DNA of 64,000 nucleotides from Verrucomicrobiaceae bacterium (lineage in GTDB: Bacteria; Verrucomicrobiota; Verrucomicrobiia; Verrucomicrobiales; Akkermansiaceae). Both the position numbers and the translations under genes were made by a program. The stretch is taken from contig JAIXWR010000042.1 of the NCBI GenBank assembly GCA_027491155.1, forward strand, positions 1 to 64,000. Reading direction: 5' to 3'. Of the stretch, positions 14,868 through 32,758 are shown one piece after another. How positions within the stretch are numbered: the stretch's first letter is position 1; every line of letters starts with the position of its first letter. Below the pieces are notes generated by a model. The model was given only the letters and a program-made list of their open reading frames with translations. It did not search any database and was not told the origin of the DNA.

Positions 14868-15350
14868 ATGCCGCAGCGCTCCACCGGATCCCGTGTCTAT
14901 CTCACCCTCGTCGGCTTCGCGCTGGCGCTGGTGGGGGGAATTTTCGCCGCGCTGATGTGGCGGAGCTTCCAGCGGGCGCGGGTCGTGGACAGTTGGCCGG
15001 TGGTGCCGTGCATCATCCTGCGCTCGGACGTCGAGGAGCGGCAGATCGACCCCAACGGCGCGGTCGAGCGGCGTTTTGCCGTGCTGTTCGGCTATGAATG
15101 GCAGGGCCAGCCGATGGAAAGCGCGTTGCTGAAACTCCGCGGCAGCATGTGGACCAGCAAGCCGCAGGGCGCGGACGCCCTGATCGAGCGCTACCCCGAA
15201 GGCTCCCGCCAGGAGTGCCGGGTCAACCCCGCCGATCCCTCCGTCGCCGTGCTGGAGCCGGAGTCGAAAGCGCCGGGCTACTCGCTGTGGTTCCCGCTGC
15301 TCTTCGTCGTCGGCGGACTGGGGGTGATGGGCGGGGCGTGGCGGAAGTAG
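14868..15350 (+). CDS. DUF3592-type membrane protein
   Basis: A 160-aa protein with a transmembrane helix at residues about 10-32, a central beta-rich soluble part (the WPVVPCIILRSDVEE start is typical of DUF3592) and a second transmembrane helix at about 137-156. Function unknown. It is convergent with the truncated ABC-2 permease, only 4 bp apart. Confidence 0.7.
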   Translation: MPQRSTGSRVYLTLVGFALALVGGIFAALMWRSFQRARVVDSWPVVPCIILRSDVEERQIDPNGAVERRFAVLFGYEWQGQPMESALLKLRGSMWTSKPQGADALIERYPEGSRQECRVNPADPSVAVLEPESKAPGYSLWFPLLFVVGGLGVMGGAWRK

Positions 15351-17584
15351 GGGATCACGTCGAACTCGTCTTCACCAGCAGCCCCTTTTCCCGCGCGGTC
15401 CGCAGCACCGAGGCGAAGAGGCCGCCGGCGAGAGCGAGGTAGAGGGCGTTGAGGCCGAGGGCGATGGCGAACTGCGGGACGTCGAAGCCGCCGTCGCGGA
15501 TCGCGCCGCGCATGCCTTCGAAGACGTGGGCGGGCGGCAGGGCGTTGGCGATGCCGCGCATCCAGGCCGGCAGCACTTCCATCGGGTAGAAGACGCAGGC
15601 GAAGGGCTGGATCATGAAGGGCAGCGCCCAGGCGAGCGATTCGGCGCCGTGGCCCCAGCGCAGGATCAGGGCGATCGACAGGATGCCGAGCGCCCAGCCG
15701 AAGAGCATCAGGTTCGCGTAGTAGGCGATCAGCGCCCACTGGAATTGGAACAGGTTGAACGAGTAGGCCGTCGCCGCGACTAGGACGAGCATGCCCGCGG
15801 TGATCGCCACCCGCAGCAGGCCGACGCCGAAGGTGGCGGCGATGTAGTCGGTCATGCGGACGGGCGCGGCGAAGATGTTGAGCAGGTTCCGCGTCCAGAC
15901 GTCCTCGAGGAATGAGATCGAAACGCCCTGCTGCGCCCGGAACAGCGCGTCCCACAGGATGATCCCGCCGATCAGGAAGGTGATGAATTGCGGGAACTCC
16001 CCGCCTCCGCCGGCTTTTTGCAGGTACATCGTGACGAAGCCCCAGACGAGGAGCTGCACCAGCGGCCAGAAGAACAGCTCGAAGGCCCGCATCGGACTGT
16101 TGGGGTTGAGAATTTACAAGCGACTGTCCGGGCACGTAGTGCAGCGCGAATTCGACCCGCCGGTCCTTGTGAAGGGTGATGCTCTCCACCAGGCTTTCGA
16201 CCACCTCTCGCTTCCGGTCGTTGTCGAAGTTTGGCCACTCCTTCAGAAGGGATTCCCCTTCCCGGAGGATGTCCGCCTTGGTCACGGTCTCGGCACTGAT
16301 GATCGCGATCTCCGCCTGAAGGCGCGTGATCGATTCCACGAGCTGCCGCTTCTTCTCCTCAAGCGGCGCGAACCTTTCCCGGAACTCGTCCACGCTGATC
16401 GCCTCCTTCTCATAGAGGTCGTAGAGCCGGTCTTCCTTTCGCTGTGATTGTTCGAGATCACGGCGGGTCTTCAGCAGGAGCGCCTGACGCTCCTCACCCT
16501 CGGCACTCGCGGAGTCGAGGAATTCGCCGATGTCGTCTTCGGAAAGCAGGAAGCCGCCGAGCTGCTCGACGAAGAGCTCCTCGATGTCCTCCATCGCGAT
16601 CTTGTTCGCGCACTTGAAGCAGCGGTATTTGTTCCAGCCGGTCTGGGGATAGAGCTTCTGCTTGCCCCCGCAGTGGCCGCAGTAAACGAGCCCGGAAAAG
16701 AGGTAGATCGGCTTCTTCCGCCGCACCCGCGTGTATTTCGACTTCACGTCCATCAGGATCCGATTGCAGTCGTTCCACAGATCCTCATCCACGATCGCCT
16801 CCACGGAGAGCTTTACCCACTCGTTCTCCGGCTTGTGAACCCACGACTTGTTGCGCGCCTGTGCCTTCGTGTGGTTGGCGACCCGGATCCCTTTCGCCGT
16901 GGTGTCCCTGATCAGCCGCTCGATGGTAGTGTCCGAGAACGGTCTTCCCGAGCGGGTGCGGTATCCCTGCTTGTTCAAGATATCCGCGACCCGTCGTTTG
17001 TGGCGTTCCTTCCGGTAGAGCTCGTAGATCAATTTGCGAACCGGAGCCTCATCCGGATGGGGCTCCAGCCGGCCTTCCACCCAGTGATACCCGAAGACGG
17101 TCTGGCCGCCGGTGGACTTCCCGAGCTTCGCCCGGATCGGCACCGAGGCCGCCACCCGGTCCGAGATTTCCTCGCGTTCCCACTGCGCCATCGCGGCCAC
17201 GATCGTGAAGAAAAGCCGGCCGGCCGGGGTCGAGGTGTCGATCGATTCCTGGAGCGAAATCAGGTCGGCGTCGTGCTGGCGGAACTCCTCGGAGAACTCC
17301 AGAAGCTCCCGGGTATTGCGGGCGAGCCGGGCCAGCTTGGAGAACACCAGAGCGCCGATGTGCCCCCGCTTCACGTCCGCCATCATGCGTTTCGCCTCGG
17401 GGTGATCCTTCACGGATTTGCCGCTCACCGCGTCCAATCGATAGACCTCGACGACGGTCCAGTCCTTGGCGATCGCGAACGCCCTGGCCCGCTCCTCGTG
17501 ATGGCGGGGACTCTCGCCCTCGACCTGTTCATCCGTCGAAACGCGGATCCAAATGCCGATTCGCCGTTTGAGAGGTCGATTCAT
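15278..17584 (-). CDS. Large serine recombinase (integrase), C-terminus reading into host gene
   Basis: Residues 1-150 are the resolvase catalytic domain, with Ser16 in IWIRVSTDEQ and the LARLARNTRELL helix. A recombinase domain follows (FGYHWVEGRLEPHPDEAP), then a zinc ribbon (YCGHCGG ... YRCFKC), then a coiled coil at about 370-450. This is the architecture of phage and ICE integrases. The element-derived part ends near residue 490 (VEFALHYVPGQSL, about 16,110). The frame then stays open through the permease gene in another frame to 15278, giving 768 aa. The junction-encoded tail is host sequence, so the natural C-terminus differs in the excised circle. Confidence 0.9.
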   Translation of the reverse strand: MNRPLKRRIGIWIRVSTDEQVEGESPRHHEERARAFAIAKDWTVVEVYRLDAVSGKSVKDHPEAKRMMADVKRGHIGALVFSKLARLARNTRELLEFSEEFRQHDADLISLQESIDTSTPAGRLFFTIVAAMAQWEREEISDRVAASVPIRAKLGKSTGGQTVFGYHWVEGRLEPHPDEAPVRKLIYELYRKERHKRRVADILNKQGYRTRSGRPFSDTTIERLIRDTTAKGIRVANHTKAQARNKSWVHKPENEWVKLSVEAIVDEDLWNDCNRILMDVKSKYTRVRRKKPIYLFSGLVYCGHCGGKQKLYPQTGWNKYRCFKCANKIAMEDIEELFVEQLGGFLLSEDDIGEFLDSASAEGEERQALLLKTRRDLEQSQRKEDRLYDLYEKEAISVDEFRERFAPLEEKKRQLVESITRLQAEIAIISAETVTKADILREGESLLKEWPNFDNDRKREVVESLVESITLHKDRRVEFALHYVPGQSLVNSQPQQSDAGLRAVLLAAGAAPRLGLRHDVPAKSRRRRGVPAIHHLPDRRDHPVGRAVPGAAGRFDLIPRGRLDAEPAQHLRRARPHDRLHRRHLRRRPAAGGDHRGHARPSRGDGLLVQPVPIPVGADRLLREPDALRLGARHPVDRPDPALGPRRRIARLGAALHDPALRLRLLPDGSAAGLDARHRQRPAARPRLRRHARRDPRRRLRRPAVRHRPRPQRPLPRSRRRPLRLGAADRAGKGAAGEDEFDVIPYFRHAPPITPSPPTTKSSGNHSE
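15355..16092 (-). pseudogene. ABC-2 type permease, 5' end lost at element junction
   Basis: The 245-aa frame from ATG 16092 has about six membrane segments and the ABC-2 permease pattern (first helix FFWPLVQLLVWGFVTMYL). Upstream of this ATG the homologous frame continues as ILNPNSP and then hits a stop. The family normally has 25-35 more N-terminal residues. Directly upstream lies the serine recombinase gene in another frame. I infer that the permease was interrupted by integration at about 16,110 and that its first codons are at the other end of the element. The internal ATG might still allow translation. Confidence 0.75.
16100..16120. other. Putative left attachment-site junction of the integrated element
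   Basis: On the minus strand the recombinase reading frame and the permease homology (from LNPNSPMRAFELFF) meet within about 20 bp here. Serine integrases commonly insert next to their own gene and use short core sites. The exact crossover cannot be fixed without the right junction or an empty site. Confidence 0.5.
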
Positions 17585-20861: not shown

Positions 20862-21650
20862 TCAAATCGCCTCTTGGATCCACACGAGTGAGAGCGTTTC
20901 CCCGAAGTCGATAGAATGTATGGCGTCCTCGGTGACACACTCCTTCCCATCGGGTGAGAAATCCCGCAACCAGCAGCCGGCGGGGACGTCATCCCCCCGG
21001 ACATGGCCCTCCTTGGATTTTTGCAGCTCCGCTGCGCAGGTATAGGCGTGAATCTCCGTTTCGTCTCTCAACCGGAACCCGAAGCGTTCTGTCGGCCAGA
21101 ACCATTTCCGGAAACCTCCCTTGGAGCAGATCAGGACGCATTCCTCCTTGGTATAGCGGAGGAATTGAATGGCGGTCGCAGTAAGGGTGGTCCTGAATTC
21201 GCCAGCGAGTGAGCGAAGAAGCCCAAAGCTAGGGTCCTTATTCTCGATCCGCGGTACAAACAGTTTTCCCGGCATCAGGATCTCGGCCGCGAAAAGATTC
21301 GCTTCGATCTCTTCGGGCTCCTGATTGAGCGACCAATTCGAAGCTTGAGCGATGCTGACCTCATCGATCTGGCGAACGTGGGGATGAAGGAGCACGTGGC
21401 CCAGTTCATGCGCGATCACGAAGCGCTTCTGGCCGGGAAATCGAATCGTGTTCCTAACAGTGATCAGCACGCTCCCGTCGAGCCGCACCATGCGGCCATC
21501 CGATCCCTCCAGCGGCTTCTCAAGTACGGGTGCCCCTTCATTGGCTGCAATCAATTCGATCTCGATCTCCGCAGGATCTTCGATCTCAAGCTTCGCGATG
21601 ATCTCTCGCGCCTTGACCACGGGAATCGCATCTCGCGCAGGAGCCTTCAT
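20862..21650 (-). CDS. ImmA/IrrE-family zinc metallopeptidase
   Basis: A 262-aa protein with the family zinc motif HELGH in RFVIAHELGHVLLHPH (about residue 83) and the downstream glutamate in EIEANLFAAEILMP, the classical ImmA/IrrE/DUF955 signature. Such proteases inactivate repressors or other regulators in mobile elements and stress responses. A C-terminal extension of about 100 residues has no known domain. It overlaps the upstream gene by 4 bp (ATGA) and is third in an operon behind a sigma-like gene. Confidence 0.88.
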   Translation of the reverse strand: MKAPARDAIPVVKAREIIAKLEIEDPAEIEIELIAANEGAPVLEKPLEGSDGRMVRLDGSVLITVRNTIRFPGQKRFVIAHELGHVLLHPHVRQIDEVSIAQASNWSLNQEPEEIEANLFAAEILMPGKLFVPRIENKDPSFGLLRSLAGEFRTTLTATAIQFLRYTKEECVLICSKGGFRKWFWPTERFGFRLRDETEIHAYTCAAELQKSKEGHVRGDDVPAGCWLRDFSPDGKECVTEDAIHSIDFGETLSLVWIQEAI

Positions 21651-22105
21651 ACTGCGTCGTCCGGCGGCGCCATTTTGTTCTCCTTGAGAAGCTGCAGGAG
21701 TTCGATCTCGTCGAGAAACGAGGCTTTATCGGCGGTTGGAACATGACTCAGGTTGCGGAAGGCTGCTTGCAATTTCCCCTGAGCTCCCGCTCCAAAGCCC
21801 CCGCTGCGGGCCTTCTCAAAAGCCGCTTCGATTTCGTCCTTTTGTTTAGTCCCCCAGGAAACAAGTCGGCTGGCCGCTGCCTGGACGGCGGCCTGTTTTT
21901 GTCTTGCTGCTTCCTGCCAGGATAGCCGGCGGACCTTCAGGAAAGCTTCAACCTTCCCTTGGATGGCGGCGGTCGTCTCTTCCGGATGCAGTCCGCGGGC
22001 ACGAAGGTCTTCCCTCAGTTCTGCCGGCGTCATGGTCACCGTATCGCGCTCCAGCGCTTGGAAGAGCCGCTCAAGCGGCTCATGTTCAAATGGATCGGAA
22101 TTCAT
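21647..22105 (-). CDS. Hypothetical helical protein in sigma/ImmA operon
   Basis: A 152-aa, charge-rich and mostly helical protein with no family I recognise. It is translationally coupled to the ImmA/IrrE gene (4-bp overlap) and begins 11 bp after the sigma-like gene. In ImmA-type circuits the partner gene often encodes the protease target or an antagonist of the regulator. That role is inference only. A strong GAGGAGG ribosome binding site precedes ATG 22105. Confidence 0.65.
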   Translation of the reverse strand: MNSDPFEHEPLERLFQALERDTVTMTPAELREDLRARGLHPEETTAAIQGKVEAFLKVRRLSWQEAARQKQAAVQAAASRLVSWGTKQKDEIEAAFEKARSGGFGAGAQGKLQAAFRNLSHVPTADKASFLDEIELLQLLKENKMAPPDDAV

Positions 22106-22115
22106 GGTATCCTCC

Positions 22116-22757
22116 TCATTTTACCATCCCTTCGGCGGCTGGGTGGTTGGTTGCGAAATCGCTCAGTCTCATCCTAAGTTTGCGTTTGAGTTCGTAAACA
22201 CGTTTAGCGGGAATGCCTGTCAGTTCTTCGATTTCGGCGGGCTTCTCGAATTCGGCCGCCAATGCGTCGTAAACGCCGCTCAGTTCGGTGTCGCCTTCGA
22301 GCGAGGCGCGGAAGTCTCCCAACAAGCGCTTCTGATGATCGTTGCGTTCTTTCCGTTCGACTTCGGAGATCTCGGTCGTTTTAGCGTCCGCGGCGGCATC
22401 GACAGGATCTTCCAGACCGTCGTCACCGTTGGGATCAAACACGCGGTCAACGAGCGGCTGACGGTCCGATTTCTTCTTCCAGTTGGAAACCATGCTTTCA
22501 ATGGTGCGGCGCAGGTTAGTTTCAAGGTCCAGATCGTCCCGGTAGCTTCGGCTCCCATTGGTGAGCGCATCGAAGGCTTCCATCACGAAATCATCTGCCG
22601 ACTTTCCCGCCGCCAACGCCTGCCGGCTGCCACCTCCTTTGAGGAAGTAGCCCCGCCATAGAAATCGTCGGACCCTATTGTCGGCGTAATCGATCAGCAA
22701 CGGGATCAACCGTTCCAGATCTGCCGTCTTCAGGGCCTGATCCAAGGTCTGCTTCAT
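22116..22757 (-). CDS. Sigma-70-like (ECF-type) regulatory protein
   Basis: A 213-aa protein that looks like a divergent sigma factor. The region-2-like part is ADDFVMEAFDALTNGSRSY...LRRTIESMVSNWKKKSD, and a region-4-like helix-turn-helix near the end is EIEELTGIPAKRVYELKRKL. Key promoter-melting residues cannot be assigned with certainty. It is the first gene of an operon with an unknown protein and an ImmA/IrrE protease, and is divergent from the ubiquitin-like operon (169-bp gap). Confidence 0.7.
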   Translation of the reverse strand: MKQTLDQALKTADLERLIPLLIDYADNRVRRFLWRGYFLKGGGSRQALAAGKSADDFVMEAFDALTNGSRSYRDDLDLETNLRRTIESMVSNWKKKSDRQPLVDRVFDPNGDDGLEDPVDAAADAKTTEISEVERKERNDHQKRLLGDFRASLEGDTELSGVYDALAAEFEKPAEIEELTGIPAKRVYELKRKLRMRLSDFATNHPAAEGMVK

Positions 22758-22873
22758 ATCCGAATCGAGTGGTAAAACTGGGGCTCATACCCCTTTCCGC
22801 TCCCGTATCCCGAAAACCTGGAATCTTTTTCCCAGAAATCGTCCGGAGTGGAGCGGACATGGGTAGAAGGGCA

Positions 22874-22892
22874 TCCCGTTCGAGTCGAGCGG
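22874..22892. promoter_or_regulatory. Imperfect palindrome in the divergent sigma / ubiquitin-like promoter region
   Basis: CCCG-TTCGA-G-TCGAG-CGGG forms a near-symmetrical site about 35 bp upstream of the ubiquitin-like gene. It is a candidate operator for a regulator of either operon. Confidence 0.35.
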
Positions 22893-22926
22893 GCGACCTC
22901 ACCCTAACATTAACGCCAGATATACT

Positions 22927-23421
22927 ATGAAGCAGCCCCATCAAGTCCACATCCAAATCGACGGCCGCGAGCCGCAAGCCATTGCCGTGCAAGGCGACGA
23001 AACCATCGCCTCCTTGCTTGCCCGCCTCCGGGGAGAACTTTCCGGCGCGGATCATGAACCCGAACTTCTCGCCGTCTTCACTGACGACGAAGAGGAGGAG
23101 GTCCACCACGACCGAAAGGTGTGCGAGTGCGGCCCCCACGGACCGAAGATCTTGCATCTCCACCGCTGCCGGAAGGTCGCGGTGACGGTCTTTTACAATG
23201 GGACGGAGACCCGGGATTTCAACCCCAACGCCACGATCCGCCGCGTTGCCGAATGGGCGAAGAAGCAATTCAAGGTGGATGAAGGCCGCAAGTGGGTGCT
23301 GCGCCTCGACAGCGCGGACGGAGAGATCCTCGACTCCGACGCCAGGCTCGGCAAGCTGGTGAATTCCCCAGCCTGCAAAGTCGCACTTTACCTCACCGAG
23401 CGATGCATGATCCAGGGCTGA
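22927..23421 (+). CDS. Two-domain ubiquitin-like protein (BilA-like)
   Basis: A 164-aa protein that reads as two beta-grasp domains. The first spans about residues 5-80 (VHIQIDGREPQAIAVQGDET start), the second about 83-164 (KVAVTVFYNGTETRDFNPNATIRRVAEWA). The chain ends ...LTERCMIQG, a bare C-terminal glycine that needs no trimming before E1 activation. A CECGPHG segment and a short acidic DDEEEE run lie in domain one. The two-domain layout matches ISG15-like bacterial UBLs such as BilA. It starts the operon UBL-E2-JAB-E1; its end overlaps the E2 start by 19 bp. Family assignment is from pattern and context, not a search. Confidence 0.75.
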   Translation: MKQPHQVHIQIDGREPQAIAVQGDETIASLLARLRGELSGADHEPELLAVFTDDEEEEVHHDRKVCECGPHGPKILHLHRCRKVAVTVFYNGTETRDFNPNATIRRVAEWAKKQFKVDEGRKWVLRLDSADGEILDSDARLGKLVNSPACKVALYLTERCMIQG

Positions 23422-23891
23422 GTCTGGACGAGGAGTGTTTCCGGGAGCATCTGGAAGGCTTCGATTTTCGTCAGGGCGAAGAGGCCGGGCGATGGAGCCT
23501 CCACGAAGATGACTCGGTGAAGTGGCCAAACGCAGTGATCTGGGTCGCCGCCCCCCCGCGGGCTAGCGGCCCCGACCGCTTCCACCTCTTTTTCAACTTG
23601 GGCGGATACCCGAACGAGGGGCCGACTGCATTTTTGTGGGATCCAGCGACGAAAGCGAAGTTGGACCCGGCGAACTGGCCTAAGGGCGTGAACGACGTGC
23701 ATATGGCGCTCCGCGCCACCTGGAACAATGCCAACGCCATCTATGCCCCTTGGGATCGGTTGGCTGCCGCCGGTCATCCCGACTGGCTTGTTAAGCACGC
23801 CGGGCTGCTTTGGAGCCCGGCTCACACGATCGTCCACTACCTGAGGCTCACCCATGAGCTTCTGCAATCCGAAGACTACCATGGCACCTGA
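23403..23891 (+). CDS. E2/UBC-like protein lacking a core cysteine
   Basis: A 162-aa protein whose middle resembles prokaryotic E2 folds: a beta-meander with HLFFNLGGYPNEGPTAFLWDP (residues 61-81), then NWPKG and AIYAPWDRLAAAGHPDW. Its only cysteine is Cys12, far from where an E2 thioester cysteine should be. Trp117 in YAPWDR sits where I recall related proteins having cysteine, but I could not verify this by alignment. ATG 23403 overlaps the UBL gene by 19 bp, and the end overlaps the JAB gene by 11 bp. E2 identity rests on operon context plus this weak pattern. Confidence 0.6.
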   Translation: MHDPGLSLDEECFREHLEGFDFRQGEEAGRWSLHEDDSVKWPNAVIWVAAPPRASGPDRFHLFFNLGGYPNEGPTAFLWDPATKAKLDPANWPKGVNDVHMALRATWNNANAIYAPWDRLAAAGHPDWLVKHAGLLWSPAHTIVHYLRLTHELLQSEDYHGT

Positions 23892-24345
23892 ACTGAAAAT
23901 TTCGCGAGCCCTATGGCTGCGCCTCGTGTGGCAACTCCGTCGCCGTGGCGGATGCGAGCGGGAAAGCGGCGCGTTTCTGCTTGGACCAACCGAGGGAGGA
24001 CGCATTTCCAGCTTCATTTGCTACGACGATCTAGACCCCCGCTGTCTGCACACCGGTATAATTCGCTTCGACGGCAGTGGCTATGTCCCTCTCTGGAAGC
24101 GCTGCGCCGAACGACGTCTAAAGGTAGTCGCCGACGTCCATACTCATCCTACCTCCTGGACCAGCCAAAGCACGGCGGACAAGGATCATCCGATGGTGGC
24201 GCAGTCGGGCCACCTGGCTCTGATCCTTCCGAATTATGCCCAGCGTTCCTGGTCGGGCCTCAAGGGTGCGGGTTTCTACCGCTACCTCGGTCAAGGAAGT
24301 TGGGAAACCCTCTCCACCGACGCGCTCAAACTCACCATTTTCTGA
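23881..24345 (+). CDS. JAB/JAMM-family metallopeptidase (deubiquitinase-like)
   Basis: A 154-aa Zn peptidase of the prokaryotic JAB class. The JAMM signature is complete: Glu28 (RESGAFLLG), His87 and His89 in DVHTHP, then Ser97 and Asp100 in STAD. In ubiquitin-like operons this enzyme trims or removes the modifier. ATG 23881 gives an 11-bp overlap with the E2 gene; an in-frame ATG at 23854 would lengthen the overlap to 38 bp. Its stop shares one base with the E1 start (TGATG). Confidence 0.88.
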   Translation: MAPELKISRALWLRLVWQLRRRGGCERESGAFLLGPTEGGRISSFICYDDLDPRCLHTGIIRFDGSGYVPLWKRCAERRLKVVADVHTHPTSWTSQSTADKDHPMVAQSGHLALILPNYAQRSWSGLKGAGFYRYLGQGSWETLSTDALKLTIF

Positions 24346-25712
24346 TGACAATCCCCAGCCCGACCGCCGCAAACCGTCTCGCCCTCGGGCTCATGGACGC
24401 CCGTGAAATCGGCTACCCGGAAGCGGTGGCCATTCTCGAAGGCCTGACGCTGTCGCTGGTCTGCGACGATTCGATTCGCCGCTCTGCCTCCCTTCAGGCC
24501 GCCCTTGTAACGGCGTTGAATTCAGGACTGCGGGCGTTCCTCGGTGGGGTGGAGGTGCAGCTTCCCAAGAACGTGACACTGCTGATCCCATGGCCCGGCC
24601 GCATGACCCTCAATGAAGTGGTGCATAAATTGGTCGGTGCACGGAACCACATCGTTTTGAGCCCCAGCCACACGGTCTATTTCGGACACAGGCCTGCCGA
24701 ATCTCGCCCCCACGCATTGGTGGTGCGCGCGACGGGATGGCGTGGAGGCATGGAGCCTGCCGCAAAAGACAGCAGGTTTGACGAAGGTGGCGGCGTGGAT
24801 TTCGCACTCGGTGGGATCTACGCCGGTGGTCTTTCGGTCCATCGCGGGTTTCTCCGCGCGACCGCCATCTCTGCCTTTGCCTGCAATAAAAGCGCCGGGC
24901 TCTCGCTATGGAACCCGGGGGCCGACTGGACTTCAGCAGGGGCGGAAGGTCCGCCTCTACGAGCGCTGCCGGCAGGATTGTGGCTGCTGGGACTTGGACA
25001 CCTAGGACAGGCATTTCTTTGGACCTTGGGCCTCCTGCCATTCTCTGCTCCCAGCGACTGCGAAGTGATGCTCCAGGATTTCGATCTGGTTGAGGAAGCG
25101 AACGTCGGGGCCGGCTTGCTCTGCGGAACGGCCGACATCGGCACACTCAAAACCCGCGTCTGCATGCGCTGGCTGGAAGAACGCCGGTTTCGTACTCGGT
25201 TGTGCGAGCGGCCATTCGACGAATCGATCCGACGGGAAGCAGCGGAACCAGCCATCGCGCTCTGCGGCTTCGACAAGGCTGCGCCACGGAGGAAGCTCGA
25301 GGACGCAGGTTTTCTGCGAGTCATTGAGTGCGGACTGGGAGGAAGCATCAACGATTTCGATCTCATCCACGTTCACAATTTTCCTGGCGCACGTAAGGCC
25401 GCCGACATCTGGAAAGGCATCGGCGACATGCCGAAACCGAAAGCGAAGGTGATGGCAGGTTTCGCCACCTCCGAAGAAGTTTGCGGCGCGCTCGCAGCCA
25501 CCACCGCGGGTAAGTCGGTTTCAACCAGCTTCATCGGTGCCATGGCGTCGGCCGTCGTCTTCGGCGAACTGCTCCGGGCATATCATCGGGGAAAGCGGCA
25601 CGATGAACTTTTTCTCAGCCCCCGCAACATGATCGATTGCGACTTCGCGTGCTCCGATCAGACATATACTGCCGCCTGCATCGCTGCTGCTGGATTCGCG
25701 AAGACCGGCTGA
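24345..25712 (+). CDS. E1-like / ThiF-family adenylyltransferase
   Basis: A 455-aa protein. The C-terminal half is a ThiF/E1 adenylation domain: nucleotide-binding GLGHLG at 216-221, acidic strand QDFDLVEEANVG at 244-255, Lys269 and the TSFIGAMASAVVFGELLR helix at 394-411. Cys380 in EEVCGALA is the best candidate for the E1 thioester cysteine. The N-terminal ~205 residues form a separate domain, as in many prokaryotic E1 proteins of UBL operons. It should adenylate the C-terminal glycine of the UBL. It is the last gene of the four-gene operon. Confidence 0.87.
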   Translation: MTIPSPTAANRLALGLMDAREIGYPEAVAILEGLTLSLVCDDSIRRSASLQAALVTALNSGLRAFLGGVEVQLPKNVTLLIPWPGRMTLNEVVHKLVGARNHIVLSPSHTVYFGHRPAESRPHALVVRATGWRGGMEPAAKDSRFDEGGGVDFALGGIYAGGLSVHRGFLRATAISAFACNKSAGLSLWNPGADWTSAGAEGPPLRALPAGLWLLGLGHLGQAFLWTLGLLPFSAPSDCEVMLQDFDLVEEANVGAGLLCGTADIGTLKTRVCMRWLEERRFRTRLCERPFDESIRREAAEPAIALCGFDKAAPRRKLEDAGFLRVIECGLGGSINDFDLIHVHNFPGARKAADIWKGIGDMPKPKAKVMAGFATSEEVCGALAATTAGKSVSTSFIGAMASAVVFGELLRAYHRGKRHDELFLSPRNMIDCDFACSDQTYTAACIAAAGFAKTG

Positions 25713-27580: not shown

Positions 27581-28528
27581 TCAGGCCGCCAGAGCCAGTT
27601 CCCGAAACTGCTTCCGGGCGATCTCCTCGAACTCCGGCCGCGACAGTTTCGTGTAGTGCGAGATCGAATGCGGTGAACCGTGACCCACGATCTGCGCGAT
27701 CAAGGCGTCCGGCACGCCGAGCTTGGCGAGCCGGTGGATCAGCGCGTGCCGGAAGGAATGCGGCGAGATTCGTCGGGCGATTTCAGCCTCCTTCGCCACA
27801 CGCTTCACCATGCGCTGGACGCATCGCGTTGTCATCCGTTGCTCAGTCTCGGCTCCCTCATAAACGAAGAGCCAATCGGAACTGGCACCGGAGTTCACAC
27901 GCTCGACGATCCAGCGATGGAGAACATCGTCCGTCTCCGGATTCCAGAACACGCGCCGCCGCTGAACCGTCTTTTCGGTTCGAATCACGGCCGACGAGTC
28001 TTCCTCGATCTGATCGATCTCAAGCTGCACCAGTTCACCGACACGCATGCCGGTGTCGTGCAGCAGCATGAGGATCGCAAGGTCACGCAAAGCCACGTCC
28101 CCTTTCCCTTCGAGAACCCGGACCATGGCCCGGTATTCTTCCTCGGTCGCAGCGTTGTGGGAACACGCCGTCGCCTTGGGCACCTTCGCGAGGTATAATG
28201 GGAACTGCCGAAGGCGTCCCTGTTCGTGCCAGAACCGCAGATAGTTGTGAATCACGTTCAGCGCGAACTCCAAGGACTTCGGTGCAAAGCGCCCATCAAG
28301 GCTACGCGCGAAGGCGGTCCAATCGCCAAGCGCCAGCGCCTCGGGCGCTTTGTTCGTGAAGTCGTCAAACCGTCTCACCCACACCTCGTAAGCCTTCGCC
28401 GCGCGAGGCGCATAAGTCATCTTCCACTCCAGGTATTGTTCGACAAACGTGCCGGATTCCTCCGGCACGGCAGCCCGGAACGCCGGTGGCGCTCCCCATC
28501 GATTCGGCTGCCGATTCTTGGTTAACAT
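27581..28528 (-). CDS. Tyrosine recombinase / phage-type integrase
   Basis: A 315-aa site-specific recombinase. The N-terminal SAM-like core-binding domain spans about residues 25-115. The catalytic domain shows Arg in DTGMRVGELVQL, HxxR in SPHSFRHALIHRL, the second His in VGHGSP and the nucleophilic Tyr in SHYTKLSRPEF. It is a second recombinase within the element, 11 kb from the serine integrase, so it may belong to a nested or older element, or act on dimers. It is divergent from the hairpin-rich region. Confidence 0.9.
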   Translation of the reverse strand: MLTKNRQPNRWGAPPAFRAAVPEESGTFVEQYLEWKMTYAPRAAKAYEVWVRRFDDFTNKAPEALALGDWTAFARSLDGRFAPKSLEFALNVIHNYLRFWHEQGRLRQFPLYLAKVPKATACSHNAATEEEYRAMVRVLEGKGDVALRDLAILMLLHDTGMRVGELVQLEIDQIEEDSSAVIRTEKTVQRRRVFWNPETDDVLHRWIVERVNSGASSDWLFVYEGAETEQRMTTRCVQRMVKRVAKEAEIARRISPHSFRHALIHRLAKLGVPDALIAQIVGHGSPHSISHYTKLSRPEFEEIARKQFRELALAA

Positions 28529-29177: not shown

Positions 29178-29362
29178 TACCTCTACGGCTTCCGAAATGG
29201 TAAAATGGTTACGGACGAACCTCCCCCCGAAGCCCTGCTTCGGACATCGGCGGCAGCCTCTCTCCCACGGGCTCCACAACCATGGCATGCCCGTGCGAAC
29301 GACTTCTCCCGCGAACGCAAGGCGCGGACAAAGCCGGTCACGCGAGGGCGGCCGCCTCCGGT

Positions 29363-30628
29363 ATGAAAATCTCGATCCATCTTGGCGACCGAATCGGCTA
29401 CGCCTGCTCAAAATCCCCGTACTCGTTGCCCGCCTCGCTGCTCACCCGCCATTGCTATGTGATTGGCAAGACGGGCACCGGAAAAACCACGTTGCTCCAG
29501 AACGCGGTGGCTTCGTTGATCCAACAGGGCCAGGGCATCGGCGTGATCGATCCCCACGGCGATTTCGCGAGTGCCCTTCTCGACCTGGTGCCACCGGATC
29601 GGGTGAACGACGTGGTTTACCTTGATCCAGCCGATCCGACGCATGCGCCGGCCCTCAATCTCGTGTCCTCCGCGACGCGACCGGAGGACCGGCCGCTCAT
29701 CGCCTCGGCACTGGTGGCCGCTTTCCGCCACATCTGGTCGGAAAGCTGGGGACCCAGGATGGAATACATTCTCTACAATTCCCTGCGGGTCCTGCTCGAC
29801 AGCCAGAACACGTCGCTGGTCTCGCTGCCGCGGCTTCTCTCCGATCCGGACTACCGTCGAAGCCTGGTGAAGCAATGCCAAGATCCCTTTGTCCGGCATT
29901 TCTGGGACGAGGAATTCGGCCGCTGGGACGATCGCTTCCTTCGTGAAGCCATCGCCCCGATCCAGAACAAGCTCGGCCAATTCACGACCATGCCGCCCCT
30001 CCGCCACATGCTCGGCCAGATCCCGTTGAAGATCGATTTCCGGGAGATTCTGGACTCAGGAAAAATCCTCGTGGTGAACCTTTCCAAAGGGAGCCTTGGC
30101 GATGACGCCTCGCGTTTGTTGGGTGCCCTGATCACGGCCTTCATCGCCTCGACTGCCATGGGCCGGTCCAACCAGAAGGAGACCGAGCGACGCGACTTCG
30201 TGCTGTTCATCGATGAGGCGCAGAACTTTCTCTCGGACGCGTTGGCATCGATCCTTTCCGAGTCCCGGAAATACGGGCTCGGATTGGTCCTTTCGCACCA
30301 GTTTCTCGACCAGCTCCCCCCGCGCCTTCAAAGCGCCGTGCTTGGAAACGCGGGGACGACGATTTGCTTCGCCCTTTGCGGCGAAGATTCGCAGCGCTTC
30401 GAGGTCAACTTTGGAAGGAACTTCCCCGCGCACCAATTCACCGACCTCGCTCCGTTCACGGCACTGGTCCGCGCGGCCGACGACACGCGGTTTCCCTTCC
30501 GGCTCGAATCGGCTCCACCGAGCGCGAAGAGGTATCGCTGTCGTCGGAAGATCCTCCATCAGAGCCGGCAGCGCTACTGCGGCCTCCGATCGAAGGTCGA
30601 AGCGCGGTTGGCCCGCTTCCTTCGCTGA
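29363..30628 (+). CDS. VirD4/TraG-like DNA-translocating ATPase
   Basis: A 421-aa ATPase with Walker A GKTGTGKTT at residues 35-43, GVIDPHGDF just after it, and Walker B FVLFIDEAQNF. It ends in the TraG/TraD-like C-terminal region (SRKYGLGLVLSHQFLDQL). These are features of type IV coupling-protein ATPases that bind and pump DNA. It has no N-terminal membrane anchor, so it is a soluble form. It precedes a replication-relaxation family gene by 26-35 bp, a pairing known from mobilizable elements. No relaxase of a classical family is seen in the window. Confidence 0.88.
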   Translation: MKISIHLGDRIGYACSKSPYSLPASLLTRHCYVIGKTGTGKTTLLQNAVASLIQQGQGIGVIDPHGDFASALLDLVPPDRVNDVVYLDPADPTHAPALNLVSSATRPEDRPLIASALVAAFRHIWSESWGPRMEYILYNSLRVLLDSQNTSLVSLPRLLSDPDYRRSLVKQCQDPFVRHFWDEEFGRWDDRFLREAIAPIQNKLGQFTTMPPLRHMLGQIPLKIDFREILDSGKILVVNLSKGSLGDDASRLLGALITAFIASTAMGRSNQKETERRDFVLFIDEAQNFLSDALASILSESRKYGLGLVLSHQFLDQLPPRLQSAVLGNAGTTICFALCGEDSQRFEVNFGRNFPAHQFTDLAPFTALVRAADDTRFPFRLESAPPSAKRYRCRRKILHQSRQRYCGLRSKVEARLARFLR

Positions 30629-30663: not shown

Positions 30664-31638
30664 ATGAATCATCCGCGGCCGAGGAAGCCACGGTTCCGTC
30701 GGGCTGCTCTCCCCGTGCCCATTCGCCTGACCGGGCGAGACTACCAGATCCTGAATCTTGTTTCGGTTCACCGGTTCCTCCGGTCGAATCATGTCATCGC
30801 TCTGGTGAGCGGCAGCTCCCAGCATTTGATCCGGCGACTTGGCCGGCTCTACCATGCCGGGCTGCTGGATCGGCCACCGCTCCAACGCCTCCATGCGAAC
30901 GAGGATCAGCACATCAGCTACTGCCTTTCCGAACGGGGACGGAAGGAGTTGATCTCCCACGGCGAGCGAGTCTTCCCGGGCGTTCCAAGAATGAGGCCGC
31001 TTTCGTCCGGCTCTCATCTTGGCCACGACCTCCGGGTCGCCGATATCGTTGTCGCGGTGCAATCCTCAGCACGCGCCTGCGGCATCGAGTTTCGTCATCA
31101 CCACGATTGGGAAGCCTTCGAGGTAGCGGCCGGCGAGACACCGCTTCATCCGATGAAGTGGCCGGTCCGATTGAAGATTCACAGCCGGAGCAGTACCACG
31201 TGGGTCATCCCGGATGCCGCCTTCTCCATCCGCGACACGGCAGATCGGGAGTCGTTTTTCCTGCTGGAAGTGGACAGAGGCACGATGCCGGTGGCACGGA
31301 GCGACCCGTTCCAATCCAGCTTCCTCAAGAAGGTCGAAGCCTACCGTGAATCGAGGACCCGGGGGCATCTTTGGAAACGATGGCAGATTCCGGGATTCCG
31401 GGTTCTCGTCGTTACGGAAACGGAGGAGCGCAAGAAGTCGCTCCAAGCGGCGACCGCTCGTTGCTTCCGTCACGGCACCTCCACCATGTTCCTCTTCGCG
31501 GTGGCGCATGCCGTCCTCACCGCTGCCGATTCCCTTGATTCCCCATGGGAAGATTGCACGGGCCGAATGGTCGGGCTCGTCCCGCACCCGCCAACGGACG
31601 GCGAGTCCTGTCAATCCCTCCCGTTCCCGGGTCCGTGA
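30664..31638 (+). CDS. Replication-relaxation family protein
   Basis: A 324-aa protein whose N-terminus (LTGRDYQILNLVSVHRFLRS, then a winged-helix through LGRLYHAGLLDR) matches the Replic_Relax family (PF13814-like), often next to TraG/VirD4 ATPases on mobile elements. The C-terminal part is beta-rich with a possible nuclease-like core (IPDAAFSIRD...FFLLEVDRGT), consistent with the PD-(D/E)XK-like part proposed for such proteins. ATG 30655 is an alternative start. Confidence 0.75.
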   Translation: MNHPRPRKPRFRRAALPVPIRLTGRDYQILNLVSVHRFLRSNHVIALVSGSSQHLIRRLGRLYHAGLLDRPPLQRLHANEDQHISYCLSERGRKELISHGERVFPGVPRMRPLSSGSHLGHDLRVADIVVAVQSSARACGIEFRHHHDWEAFEVAAGETPLHPMKWPVRLKIHSRSSTTWVIPDAAFSIRDTADRESFFLLEVDRGTMPVARSDPFQSSFLKKVEAYRESRTRGHLWKRWQIPGFRVLVVTETEERKKSLQAATARCFRHGTSTMFLFAVAHAVLTAADSLDSPWEDCTGRMVGLVPHPPTDGESCQSLPFPGP

Positions 31639-31644
31639 TAAAAT
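31639..31644 (+). promoter_or_regulatory. -10-like TAAAAT upstream of primase gene
   Basis: GATAAAATGGAGG overlaps the stop of the preceding gene and lies 74 bp upstream of the primase start. Its presence argues against the in-frame ATG at 31643 as the primase start. Confidence 0.35.
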
Positions 31645-31717
31645 GGAGGTTCAGGAAGCCACGGCAGCATGTGCTGCTGGGCTCTTTCCTATCTCACTCA
31701 ACCAGACTGTTCCTTTT

Positions 31718-32758
31718 ATGAAAACCGACCAGGCATCACCGAATGGCTTCGTGGACTTCAAGCAGGTCAAAGCCAGCGTCACCATGCTCCAAATCCTGGA
31801 GCGCTACCAACTCGTGGAGACCCTCCGACAGAACGGCGACCGACTGTCCGGGCCGTGCCCCATTCACAAGGGGAAAAACCCCACCGCGTTTCGCGTCTCG
31901 ATCAGCAAGAACTGCTTCAATTGCTTTGGAAGCTGCGCACGCGGCGGCAACGTCATCGACTTCGTTTCACTCATGGAAGGAGTCGGCTTCCGCGAAGCAG
32001 CCCTTTTGCTTCAGCAATGGTTCCTCGACCCATCCAGTGACGGCGGACCTGCACGAAGCAAGAAGGCCGTCCGAAAGCCTAACCGCGCGAAGAAACCCGA
32101 GCCAAGCCCGTCCACTGCCCCGACCTCCGTTTCGGAGGAACCGATTGCAGAGGCCGGACCGAATCCCCCGCTCACCTTCGAGCTGAAGACGTTGAAAACC
32201 GACCATCCCTACCTGTTTCAGCGGGGCCTTGAACCGGAGACCATCGAACACTTCGGGCTCGGCCTTTGCTCGCGAGGCATGCTTCGGGGCTACATCGCCA
32301 TTCCCATCCACAACCGTGAGGGCGAACTCGTGGCCTACGCCGGCCGCTGGCCGGGCGATCCGCCGGAGGGCAACGCGAGATACAAGCTCCCCAAGGGATT
32401 CCGTAAGAGCCAGGAGATCTTCAATCTCCACCGGGCCTTGGAAGAGGAAGAAGATACTCCCCTCGTCATCGTGGAAGGCTTCTTCGATTGCTTCACCCTG
32501 TGGCAGGCAGGCATCACCAAATGTGTGGCTCTCATGGGCTGCACGATGTCGGAGGACCAGCTCTTCCTGCTTACCGAGTCGTTGCCGGTAGGAAGCAGCA
32601 TCGAGCTGCTGTTCGACAATGACGAAGCGGGCATCCACGGTGCCGAAGTGATCCGCGCTCAACTCGGGGAATTCGCGGTCCGCGTCGTGACGCTCCCGGA
32701 AGGCATCCGCCAACCGGACGAGCTTTCCTCGGATCAAATCCCTGATGCCTTCGCTTAG
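31718..32758 (+). CDS. DNA primase-like protein (CHC2 zinc finger and TOPRIM)
   Basis: A 346-aa primase. The CHC2-type zinc finger uses Cys47, His50, Cys66 and Cys69 (CPIH ... CFNCF). A linker rich in Pro and Lys is followed by the TOPRIM domain near residue 248 (VIVEGFFDCF, later FDNDEAG). It lacks the long RNA-polymerase core of DnaG, so it is a short element-type primase. It probably primes replication of the element together with the initiator-like gene at 26499. Confidence 0.85.
   Translation: MKTDQASPNGFVDFKQVKASVTMLQILERYQLVETLRQNGDRLSGPCPIHKGKNPTAFRVSISKNCFNCFGSCARGGNVIDFVSLMEGVGFREAALLLQQWFLDPSSDGGPARSKKAVRKPNRAKKPEPSPSTAPTSVSEEPIAEAGPNPPLTFELKTLKTDHPYLFQRGLEPETIEHFGLGLCSRGMLRGYIAIPIHNREGELVAYAGRWPGDPPEGNARYKLPKGFRKSQEIFNLHRALEEEEDTPLVIVEGFFDCFTLWQAGITKCVALMGCTMSEDQLFLLTESLPVGSSIELLFDNDEAGIHGAEVIRAQLGEFAVRVVTLPEGIRQPDELSSDQIPDAFA

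What the first reader, a model, noticed from the sequence alone, without database searches (positions are those of the whole stretch)
22927..25712. Mobile ubiquitin-conjugation-like operon: UBL, E2-like, JAB, E1 with unusual order
Four overlapping genes encode a two-domain ubiquitin-like protein ending in a bare glycine, an E2-like protein, a JAMM peptidase and an E1/ThiF enzyme. The described antiphage Bil systems have the same four parts but, as I recall, the order UBL-E2-E1-DUB. Here JAB precedes E1, and the operon sits inside an integrated element beside a sigma/ImmA operon. All junctions overlap by 1-19 bp, so the parts are made together. This is the best candidate for a poorly described defence or regulatory conjugation system.
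Basis: partly seen in the sequence, partly recalled or inferred. Interest (0 to 1): 0.92.

Follow-up and report, generated by a model that had tools for sequence, protein, structure and literature searches.

The report
Ubiquitin-like phage-defence operon with cysteine-less E2
The four genes are a known type of bacterial ubiquitin-like anti-phage operon (Bil) in its normal gene order, but its conjugating enzyme lacks the cysteine thought to carry the modifier, a change that recurs in related operons and suggests a different way of attaching it.

Summary
The four genes are real homologues of BilA-BilB-BilC-BilD (PADLOC, 116 to 419 bits). The odd part is the E2. BilB has the E2 fold, but Trp117 stands in the catalytic-cysteine column, which is Cys in 68 of 92 loci and mostly Tyr, Trp or Phe in the other 24. 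The E1 cysteine is kept in 94 of 94 and the JAMM residues in 93 of 93. Cys-less BilBs look under purifying selection and do not form one clade; 15 of the 24 loci, the window among them, also lack an E1 serine kept in 68 of 68 Cys-type loci. The operon lies in an element of about 82.5 kb, divergent from a sigma-like/CapP-like cassette. Best reading: a Bil variant whose E2 is a non-catalytic scaffold; direct E1-to-target transfer is inferred. The primary Bil papers were not held.

The parts
22927..23421 (+). bilA: two-domain ubiquitin-like protein, 164 aa, ends in Gly
   Evidence: PADLOC BilA 115.9 bits, residues 5-164 on profile 4-162/162; AF2 pLDDT 90, Foldseek to di-ubiquitin and ISG15; alignment profile matches polyubiquitin
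23403..23891 (+). bilB: E2/UBC-fold protein, 162 aa, DUF7665; no catalytic Cys
   Evidence: PADLOC BilB 165.6 bits; PF24702 2e-38; AF2 pLDDT 95.6; VIA Z 11.3 to 8tz0_C, the E2 of a bacterial E1-E2-Ubl complex
23751..23753 (+). TGG codon of BilB Trp117, at the column that is Cys in 68 of 92 loci
23881..24345 (+). bilC: JAMM/JAB protease (alternative start 23854)
   Evidence: PADLOC BilC 192.5 bits; 8tyx_B 'DUB(BilC)' E 3e-4; EHxHSD intact
24345..25712 (+). bilD: E1-like enzyme, 455 aa
   Evidence: PADLOC BilD 418.6 bits; alignment profile matches ThiF and 8tyz_A 'E1(BilD)'
25482..25484 (+). BilD Cys380 codon, candidate E1 catalytic Cys, C in 94 of 94
25107..25109 (+). BilD Gly255 codon; the column is Ser in 68 of 68 loci with a Cys-type E2
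22758..22926 (.). 169-bp divergent intergenic region between the sigma-like gene and bilA, presumed promoter region
   Evidence: sequence; promoter function inferred, no promoter scan run
22116..22757 (-). sigma-70-like protein, 213 aa
   Evidence: no Pfam hit itself; homologue in L131 (38% identity) matches Sigma70_r2 6e-6
21647..22105 (-). 152-aa partner; weak CapH match; possible protease substrate (inferred)
   Evidence: PADLOC capH E 0.0067 only; an ORF of similar size in the same place in L131 (likeness judged by eye)
20862..21650 (-). M78/ImmA-IrrE metallopeptidase, CapP-like
   Evidence: PF06114 6.7e-15; PADLOC capP 189.4 bits, residues 14-258
16093..17584 (-). large serine recombinase at the left end of the element; its ORF runs on into the flank to 15278
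   Evidence: Resolvase 2.5e-32 and Recombinase 4.8e-18; ORF
15355..16092 (-). 3' part of the host ABC-2 permease gene cut by the element
16100..16101 (.). left junction; the TT shared with the right junction (contig C9 about 98661-98662) is the candidate crossover
   Evidence: read by eye

Best explanation
This is a Bil-family operon (BilA Ubl, BilB E2-fold, BilC JAMM protease, BilD E1) carried by a serine-recombinase element and probably controlled by a divergent sigma-like / 152-aa partner / CapP-like peptidase cassette. Shown by sequence: the homologies, the order, intact E1 and JAMM catalytic residues, a BilA that already ends in Gly, and Trp117 at the E2 cysteine position. Inferred: BilD adenylates BilA and carries it as a thioester on Cys380; BilB cannot take a thioester and acts as a pseudo-E2 (UEV-like) that binds E1~BilA and/or the target, so that BilA passes from E1 to the target; BilC removes conjugates rather than maturing BilA; the peptidase, if activated by ssDNA as CapP is, cleaves the partner and releases the sigma-like factor to switch on bilABCD during infection or DNA damage. 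My estimates: Bil-family operon 0.97; Cys-less pseudo-E2 0.85; direct E1-to-target transfer about 0.4; peptidase-controlled expression about 0.6.
For: PADLOC BilA-D models match all four proteins; order A-B-C-D in 91 of 91 complete loci. BilB has the UBC fold, best match the E2 of the bacterial E1-E2-Ubl complex. Trp117 replaces Cys while neighbours persist: Tyr114 68/68 Cys-type and 23/23 other, Asp118 68/68 and 22/23, His125 68/68 and 23/23 (L109 left out). No Cys position is common to the 23 Cys-less BilBs listed, and 9 of the 23 have no Cys in the aligned part. E1 Cys 94/94, JAMM residues 93/93. BilA ends in bare Gly in 22 of 23 non-Cys loci against 38 of 66 Cys loci (L055 and L096 left out), so a kept JAMM fits deconjugation. 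BilB omega is 0.07-0.33 in the 7 of 9 Cys-less pairs where it could be computed, and 0.05-0.14 in 4 of 5 Cys pairs. Non-Cys rows do not form one clade: p-AU 8e-34, at least 5 changes. E1 Ser255 is 68/68 in Cys-type and lost in 15/24 others, four changes on the tree. No other E2 in the genome by the four families tried: Prok-E2_B, BilB (only itself), Prok-E2_A, UQ_con (one match, E 0.7, under the cut-off). An M78 peptidase lies near bilA in 76 of 82 loci with at least 2.5 kb upstream (the profile was built from 16 of these loci).
Against: Nothing was measured; conjugation and defence are untested. The window's W117 has no close relative to show that it is old: the highest identity in BilC+BilD is 46% and its own clade is mostly Cys-type (8 Cys, 2 non-Cys in a tree of 42 chosen rows; 10 and 2); TGG is one base from a Cys codon. 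L053, L059, L069 and L109 lack Cys but keep Ser255 and may be decay or error. Nine of 24 non-Cys loci keep Ser255, and the tree test of the Ser255 link has only a few independent pairs (sign test p 0.5-1). In the Cys-less pairs dS is about 1 or more, twice infinite, so omega is rough. Some Cys-less BilBs share a Cys elsewhere in small sets (for example L043, L069 and L125 in FxxEC). The small-peptidase/Cys-less link is not phylogenetically independent, and L156 and L157 are non-Cys with an upstream helicase. The sigma-like protein has no Pfam match of its own.
Confidence: 0.55

Rival explanations
1. The operon is a canonical Bil system recently inactivated in this strain by a Cys-to-Trp change in BilB.
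For: TGG is one base from TGC/TGT. The closest relatives are mostly Cys-type: in the window's clade 8 Cys and 2 non-Cys rows. L069 differs from near-identical Cys rows in this way.
Against: All four frames are intact. The E1 also lacks the Ser255 that is invariant in Cys-type loci. The Trp sits in the same YAPWDR as in L068, L094 and L105, members of an all-non-Cys clade. Cys-less BilBs elsewhere look under purifying selection.
Confidence: 0.25
2. BilB works as a UEV: it pairs with a separate catalytic E2, as Mms2 does with Ubc13 (recalled), and that E2 carries the thioester.
For: Mms2 and UEV-1 are among the structural matches, though so are many active E2s; the E2 fold is kept without the Cys.
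Against: No second E2 in the 99.67% complete genome by BilB, Prok-E2_A, Prok-E2_B or UQ_con (the single UQ_con match is E 0.7). Prok-E2_C, D and E were not tried.
Confidence: 0.1
3. The E2 works with another nucleophile (for example the Tyr of the Tyr clade, or a Cys elsewhere).
For: Tyr is 9 of 10 in one clade; a few Cys-less BilBs share a Cys at other positions.
Against: Trp and Phe side chains cannot form such an ester; no Cys position is common to the 23 Cys-less BilBs listed and 9 have none in the aligned part. The window's only BilB Cys is residue 12.
Confidence: 0.08
4. The system no longer conjugates; Ubl, E1 and pseudo-E2 form a non-covalent signalling or sulfur-transfer module.
For: The E1 profile matches ThiF best among solved proteins.
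Against: JAMM residues are complete in 93 of 93 and the E1 Cys present in 94 of 94. No Pfam sulfur-transfer domain was found in the four proteins.
Confidence: 0.15

Closest known systems
Bil (bacterial ISG15-like) antiphage system; reviews PMC11354881 and PMC12948488 (passages seen); PDB 8tyx, 8tyz, 8tz0
   Same: Four homologous proteins, same gene order, double-Ubl BilA, UBC-fold BilB, JAMM BilC, E1 BilD.
   Different: The review gives BilB a catalytic Cys138 and a CEHH motif (Cys138, Glu144, His146, His151); here the Cys column is Trp, although a His eight residues on (H146 there, H125 here) is kept. The solved BilD is a distant relative (alignment profile E 1.3e-5) and the BilB alignment profile finds no PDB sequence at E up to 1.
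[quoted passage not shown] 2006, PMC1779556, passages seen)
   Same: Multi-Ubl protein, E2-like domain without the Cys, JAB and E1 parts in one operon.
   Different: There JAB and E1 are joined in one protein and the E2-like group as described lacks the Cys; here four separate proteins, BilB family, and the Cys is absent in some members only.
Eukaryotic UEV proteins (Mms2, UEV-1)
   Same: UBC fold without the catalytic Cys (the lack of Cys in UEVs is recalled); among the structural matches.
   Different: UEVs pair with a catalytic E2 (recalled); none found here by the four families tried.
CapH+CapP ssDNA-activated regulators (described in PMC13373217, passages seen)
   Same: M78 peptidase matching capP at 189 bits next to an immune operon; in L045, the Bil locus of another genome, a peptidase matching capP (65 bits) beside an HTH gene matching capH (E 1.6e-8).
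   Different: In the window the partner matches capH only weakly (E 0.0067) and a sigma-like gene is present; no HTH family was found in the trio.

Membership tests
Bil | Homologues of BilA, BilB, BilC and BilD together | tested here: met
   PADLOC models, 115.9/165.6/192.5/418.6 bits
Bil | Order Ubl-E2-DUB-E1 on one strand | tested here: met
   (91 of 91 complete loci)
Bil | BilA with two ubiquitin-like domains and a C-terminal Gly | tested here: met
Bil | BilB with UBC fold | tested here: met
   (Z 11.3, rmsd 3.3, 129 aligned, to 8tz0_C)
Bil (mechanism of characterised members) | BilB catalytic Cys accepting the Ubl thioester | tested here: not met
   Trp117 at the Cys column. So I call it a Bil-family operon by homology and synteny and a variant in mechanism, not a Bil system that works through an E2 thioester
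Bil | E1 catalytic Cys and JAMM residues | tested here: met
   C380 and EHxHSD; that C380 is the catalytic Cys is inferred from its invariance
Bil | Protection against phage by conjugating BilA to phage proteins | not testable with these tools
   -
Type II CBASS | E1 and E2 domains joined in one protein (Cap2), with a CD-NTase | tested here: not met
   E1 and E2 are separate proteins. A CD-NTase was not sought in every ORF of the window
6e polyUbl operons | JAB joined to E1 | tested here: not met
   separate BilC and BilD
Bub | Bub-specific proteins (from recall) | not tested
   no Bub profiles used; primary papers not held
UEV | UBC fold without catalytic Cys | tested here: met
UEV | Partner catalytic E2 | tested here: inconclusive
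   none in the genome by four families; other Prok-E2 families not tried
CapH+CapP | M78 peptidase of the CapP family | tested here: met
   189.4 bits, profile 9-241 of 242
CapH+CapP | HTH repressor CapH as partner | tested here: inconclusive
   152-aa partner matches capH only at E 0.0067; no HTH Pfam hit

The most novel reading that the evidence does not exclude
A recurrent class of Bil systems has dispensed with E2 catalysis: the E2 is kept as a non-catalytic scaffold with an aromatic residue in place of the Cys, the E1 adenylation site co-evolved (loss of Ser255), and the Ubl goes from E1 straight to its target, giving a two-step ubiquitin-like ligation inside a family otherwise built like the eukaryotic E1-E2 cascade.
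Probability: 0.35. Interest if true: 0.8.

Novelty: new variant of a known kind. Interest (0 to 1): 0.55.

Why it matters
Bil is a close bacterial parallel to eukaryotic E1-E2 ubiquitination, and the E2 cysteine is taken as central to it. Systems that keep E1, Ubl and deconjugase while losing that cysteine would show that the E2 fold can serve without transthiolation and give a simple, natural test of E1-to-substrate transfer. The frequent linkage of Bil to M78 (ImmA/CapP-type) peptidases, in one branch in a helicase-sized protein that in the one example scanned also has UvrD helicase and PD-(D/E)XK nuclease domains, suggests that Bil is switched on by ssDNA or DNA damage.

Tried and rejected
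Rejected: 'unusual gene order'. Cofactor sulfuration: the best-fitting profiles are Bil and Pfam finds no sulfur-transfer domain in the four proteins. A single origin of the Cys-less state: rejected by AU test, though the group was named after the first tree was seen. A second E2 in trans: none found with the four families tried.

Led nowhere or weak: single-sequence PDB searches of BilA, BilB and BilD gave no useful match; the BilB alignment profile found no PDB sequence; no BilD match in phage records or in the first viral and genome scans with a single sequence; no NCBIfam match. A single-protein search of 192 relatives matched, besides the window's genome, one other genome with a short fragment. 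BilD profile in the phylum: full-length matches only in G000 and G358 of 387 genomes; the other 61 genomes with a match cover part of the profile, mostly the ThiF domain, at about 32 bits or less. I first thought that the Cys-less state and the small peptidase were linked; the tally is clear but not independent on the tree. In one search the cut at 800 aa files L109 (683-aa piece of a helicase fusion) under 'small' among the non-Cys loci, and L116 (peptidase and helicase in separate frames) and L098 (E 0.005) under 'small' among the Cys loci; I have not recounted. The M78 profile and the Bil profiles were built from loci of the same set. Sampling: the 80 genome loci are the best of 228, ranked by likeness to the window, so 24 of 92 is no population frequency.

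Rows left out: L109 (broken BilB) from the motif counts; L055 and L096 from the BilA-end counts; L065, L102, L109, L117, L069 and L071 from the trees; further rows without a classed peptidase; the tree used 42 chosen rows.

Papers: PMC11354881, PMC12948488, PMC1779556, PMC13373217 and PMC10097602 were seen as passages only; other papers as search listings. Chambers 2024, Hor 2024, Gong 2025 and Ye 2026 were not held, so I saw nothing of them beyond citations. Statements on UEVs and Bub are recalled. That I found no report of a Cys-less BilB rests only on the listings in open-licence papers; the lists were capped, and drowned in unrelated words.
Full report
What is there. Four genes on the + strand, 22927-25712, overlap by 19, 11 and 1 bp when bilC is started at 23881 (overlaps read). 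PADLOC profiles identify them as BilA, BilB, BilC and BilD over full or nearly full length. Pfam gives DUF7665 for the second (2e-38) and only sub-threshold matches for the others. NCBIfam gives none.

Order. PADLOC's BilC is the JAMM protein and its BilD the E1; PDB entries carry the same names (8tyx BilC = DUB; 8tyz BilD = E1), and the review PMC11354881 (passages) lists BilA Ubl, BilB E2, BilC DUB, BilD E1. In 91 all four genes were found and all 91 have the order A-B-C-D on one strand; three (L065, L102, L117) were incomplete. The claimed unusual order is therefore ordinary.

Folds. An AlphaFold model of BilB from 68 aligned sequences has mean pLDDT 95.6. Foldseek's best PDB match is the E2 chain of the bacterial E1-E2-Ubl complex, 8tyz_C, followed by eukaryotic E2s; its E-values are modest (2e-3, none under 1e-3). 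VIA-align gives Z 11.3, rmsd 3.3 over 129 residues, to 8tz0_C, and the 50 rows shown are, by their titles, E2-fold proteins or complexes that hold one. BilA models as two beta-grasp domains (pLDDT 90) and matches linear di-ubiquitin and ISG15 (TM-scores about 0.4 over the whole chain); its alignment profile also matches polyubiquitin by sequence. The BilD alignment profile matches ThiF (1.2e-6), the solved BilD (1.3e-5) and Uba1 (7.9e-5).

The odd part. In the BilB alignments one Cys column, in the motif YxPCDR...GH, is Cys in 68 loci and something else in 24: Tyr 9, Trp 7, Leu 3, Phe 2, Ala, Val and Ser 1 each (two further loci lacked a readable BilB). The window has Trp117. That this Cys is the catalytic one is inferred: it is the one Cys present in all 68 of the Cys-type group, and it stands eight residues before an invariant His, the spacing of Cys138 and His146 in the characterised BilB. 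In Cys-less proteins the surroundings stay: Tyr114 in 23 of 23, Asp118 in 22 of 23, His125 in 23 of 23 (L109 left out). No Cys position is common to the 23 Cys-less BilBs listed, 9 of them have no Cys in the aligned part, and small sets share one elsewhere. Among 8 further loci from plasmids and viral contigs with a readable BilB, 6 have Cys, L156 has Leu and L157 (read by eye) has Trp; in a ninth, L158, no BilB was found.

The rest of the machine is intact. The E1 Cys is present in 94 of 94 and the JAMM residues in 93 of 93. BilA ends in bare Gly in 22 of 23 non-Cys and 38 of 66 Cys loci (L055 and L096 left out of this count). So in Cys-less systems the protease would rarely be needed for maturation; its conservation fits removal of conjugates (inference).

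Evolution. On a BilC+BilD tree of 94 rows the Cys state needs at least 7 changes, 6 without L109, and 5 on a reduced set of 88 rows. Holding the 22 non-Cys rows of that set together is rejected (p-AU 8e-34; the group was named after the first tree was seen). Two groups are wholly non-Cys: one of 10 readable rows, 9 Tyr and 1 Leu, from acidobacteria, bradyrhizobia, two plasmids and a planctomycete; and one of 7 rows, 4 Trp, 2 Phe and 1 Ala, from actinobacteria (six) and Chloroflexota (one) (L044 and L096 are long branches). The window falls in a well-supported set with L045, L046 and Bacteroidota, 8 Cys and 2 non-Cys, sister to the Tyr group (42 chosen rows). Whether the window lost the Cys by itself or kept an older Trp cannot be told. 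BilB dN/dS is 0.07-0.33 in the 7 of 9 Cys-less pairs where it could be computed and 0.05-0.14 in 4 of 5 Cys pairs; in the Cys-less pairs dS is about 1 or more.

E1 co-change. BilD column 255, after the DxD motif, is Ser in 68 of 68 Cys-type loci and not Ser in 15 of 24 others (Glu 9, Ala 4, Gly 1, His 1); the window has Gly. This needs four changes, none among Cys-type rows, but independent pairs are too few for a test (p 0.5-1). A Fisher test on the raw table (2e-11) ignores kinship. The column was found by scanning for group differences, one of 13 columns listed, so it is a hypothesis, not a confirmed link. It is some argument that the window's Trp is not a lone recent hit.

Control region. 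Divergent from bilA lie a sigma-like ORF, a 152-aa ORF and an M78 peptidase that matches CapP at 189 bits. A similar trio (sigma-like, an ORF of 146 aa, CapP-like) occurs in L131. Of 82 loci with at least 2.5 kb upstream of bilA, 76 have an ORF with an M78-profile match and HExxH within 4.5 kb. In 50 of 61 Cys-type loci it sits in a helicase-sized ORF (over 800 aa); in L033, the one scanned with Pfam, the protein is M78 + UvrD helicase + PD-(D/E)XK nuclease, and in such loci the ORF two places upstream often reads as sigma-like (by eye; RefSeq labels). Of 21 non-Cys loci, 18 have a shorter ORF with the match, 15 of these on the strand opposite to bil, and 3 have none, but this split follows the tree. 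CapP is described as ssDNA-activated (PMC13373217, passages); that the window's peptidase is so is inferred.

The element. The host ABC-2 permease gene is split: its 3' part lies at 15355-16092 and a 21-residue match to its 5' end at contig C9 98660-98722, same strand (E 0.002). The two junctions share a TT at 16100-16101 and about 98661-98662, and the flanks read in frame across the empty site by eye. So the element spans about 82.5 kb, of which the window holds the left part, with a serine recombinase at its left end.

Verdict. Known system, normal order, with a mechanistically important and recurrent departure in the E2. A new variant of a known kind. The mechanism (pseudo-E2, E1-to-target transfer) is my best guess and is directly testable. 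A precedent for an inactive E2-like domain in a related prokaryotic operon type exists (type 6e of Iyer et al. 2006, passages), which lowers the surprise. I could not read the primary Bil papers.

Noticed in passing
15278-17584 (-): The serine recombinase ORF has no stop inside the element; it runs through the left junction into the permease remnant, so its C-terminus would differ in the excised form.
   Followed up: partly
contig C9 97505-98374 (+), locus L148: The element seems to carry, close to its right end, a full-length copy of the permease gene that it disrupts (89% identical to the remnant at 15358-16092), on the opposite strand.
   Followed up: partly
L033 914-4348 and similar loci: Many Bil operons with a Cys-type E2 follow a module of sigma-like protein, a conserved ORF of about 220 aa and a large protein; in L033 the latter joins an M78 peptidase, a UvrD helicase and a PD-(D/E)XK nuclease domain.
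   Followed up: partly
27581-28528 (-): Tyrosine integrase (Phage_integrase 8.8e-31) inside the element.
   Followed up: no
29282-30628 (+): FtsK/HerA-like ATPase matching PADLOC mad8 (1.5e-20).
   Followed up: no
31214-32758 (+): Perhaps a DnaG-like primase protein; matches PADLOC RT_UG29 (1.1e-27) and RTasDnaG-like (3.9e-23) models over parts.
   Followed up: no
L158 2853-4513: In a Burkholderia cepacia plasmid the bilD gene is preceded by two ORFs without any PADLOC or Pfam match; possibly a diverged A/B/C set.
   Followed up: partly
L131 7456-9239: The sigma-like / 146-aa / CapP-like trio beside a large ORF of another kind; no Bil search was run on this stretch, but none of the listed ORFs was recognised as Bil by eye, so the regulatory cassette may be modular.
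   Followed up: partly
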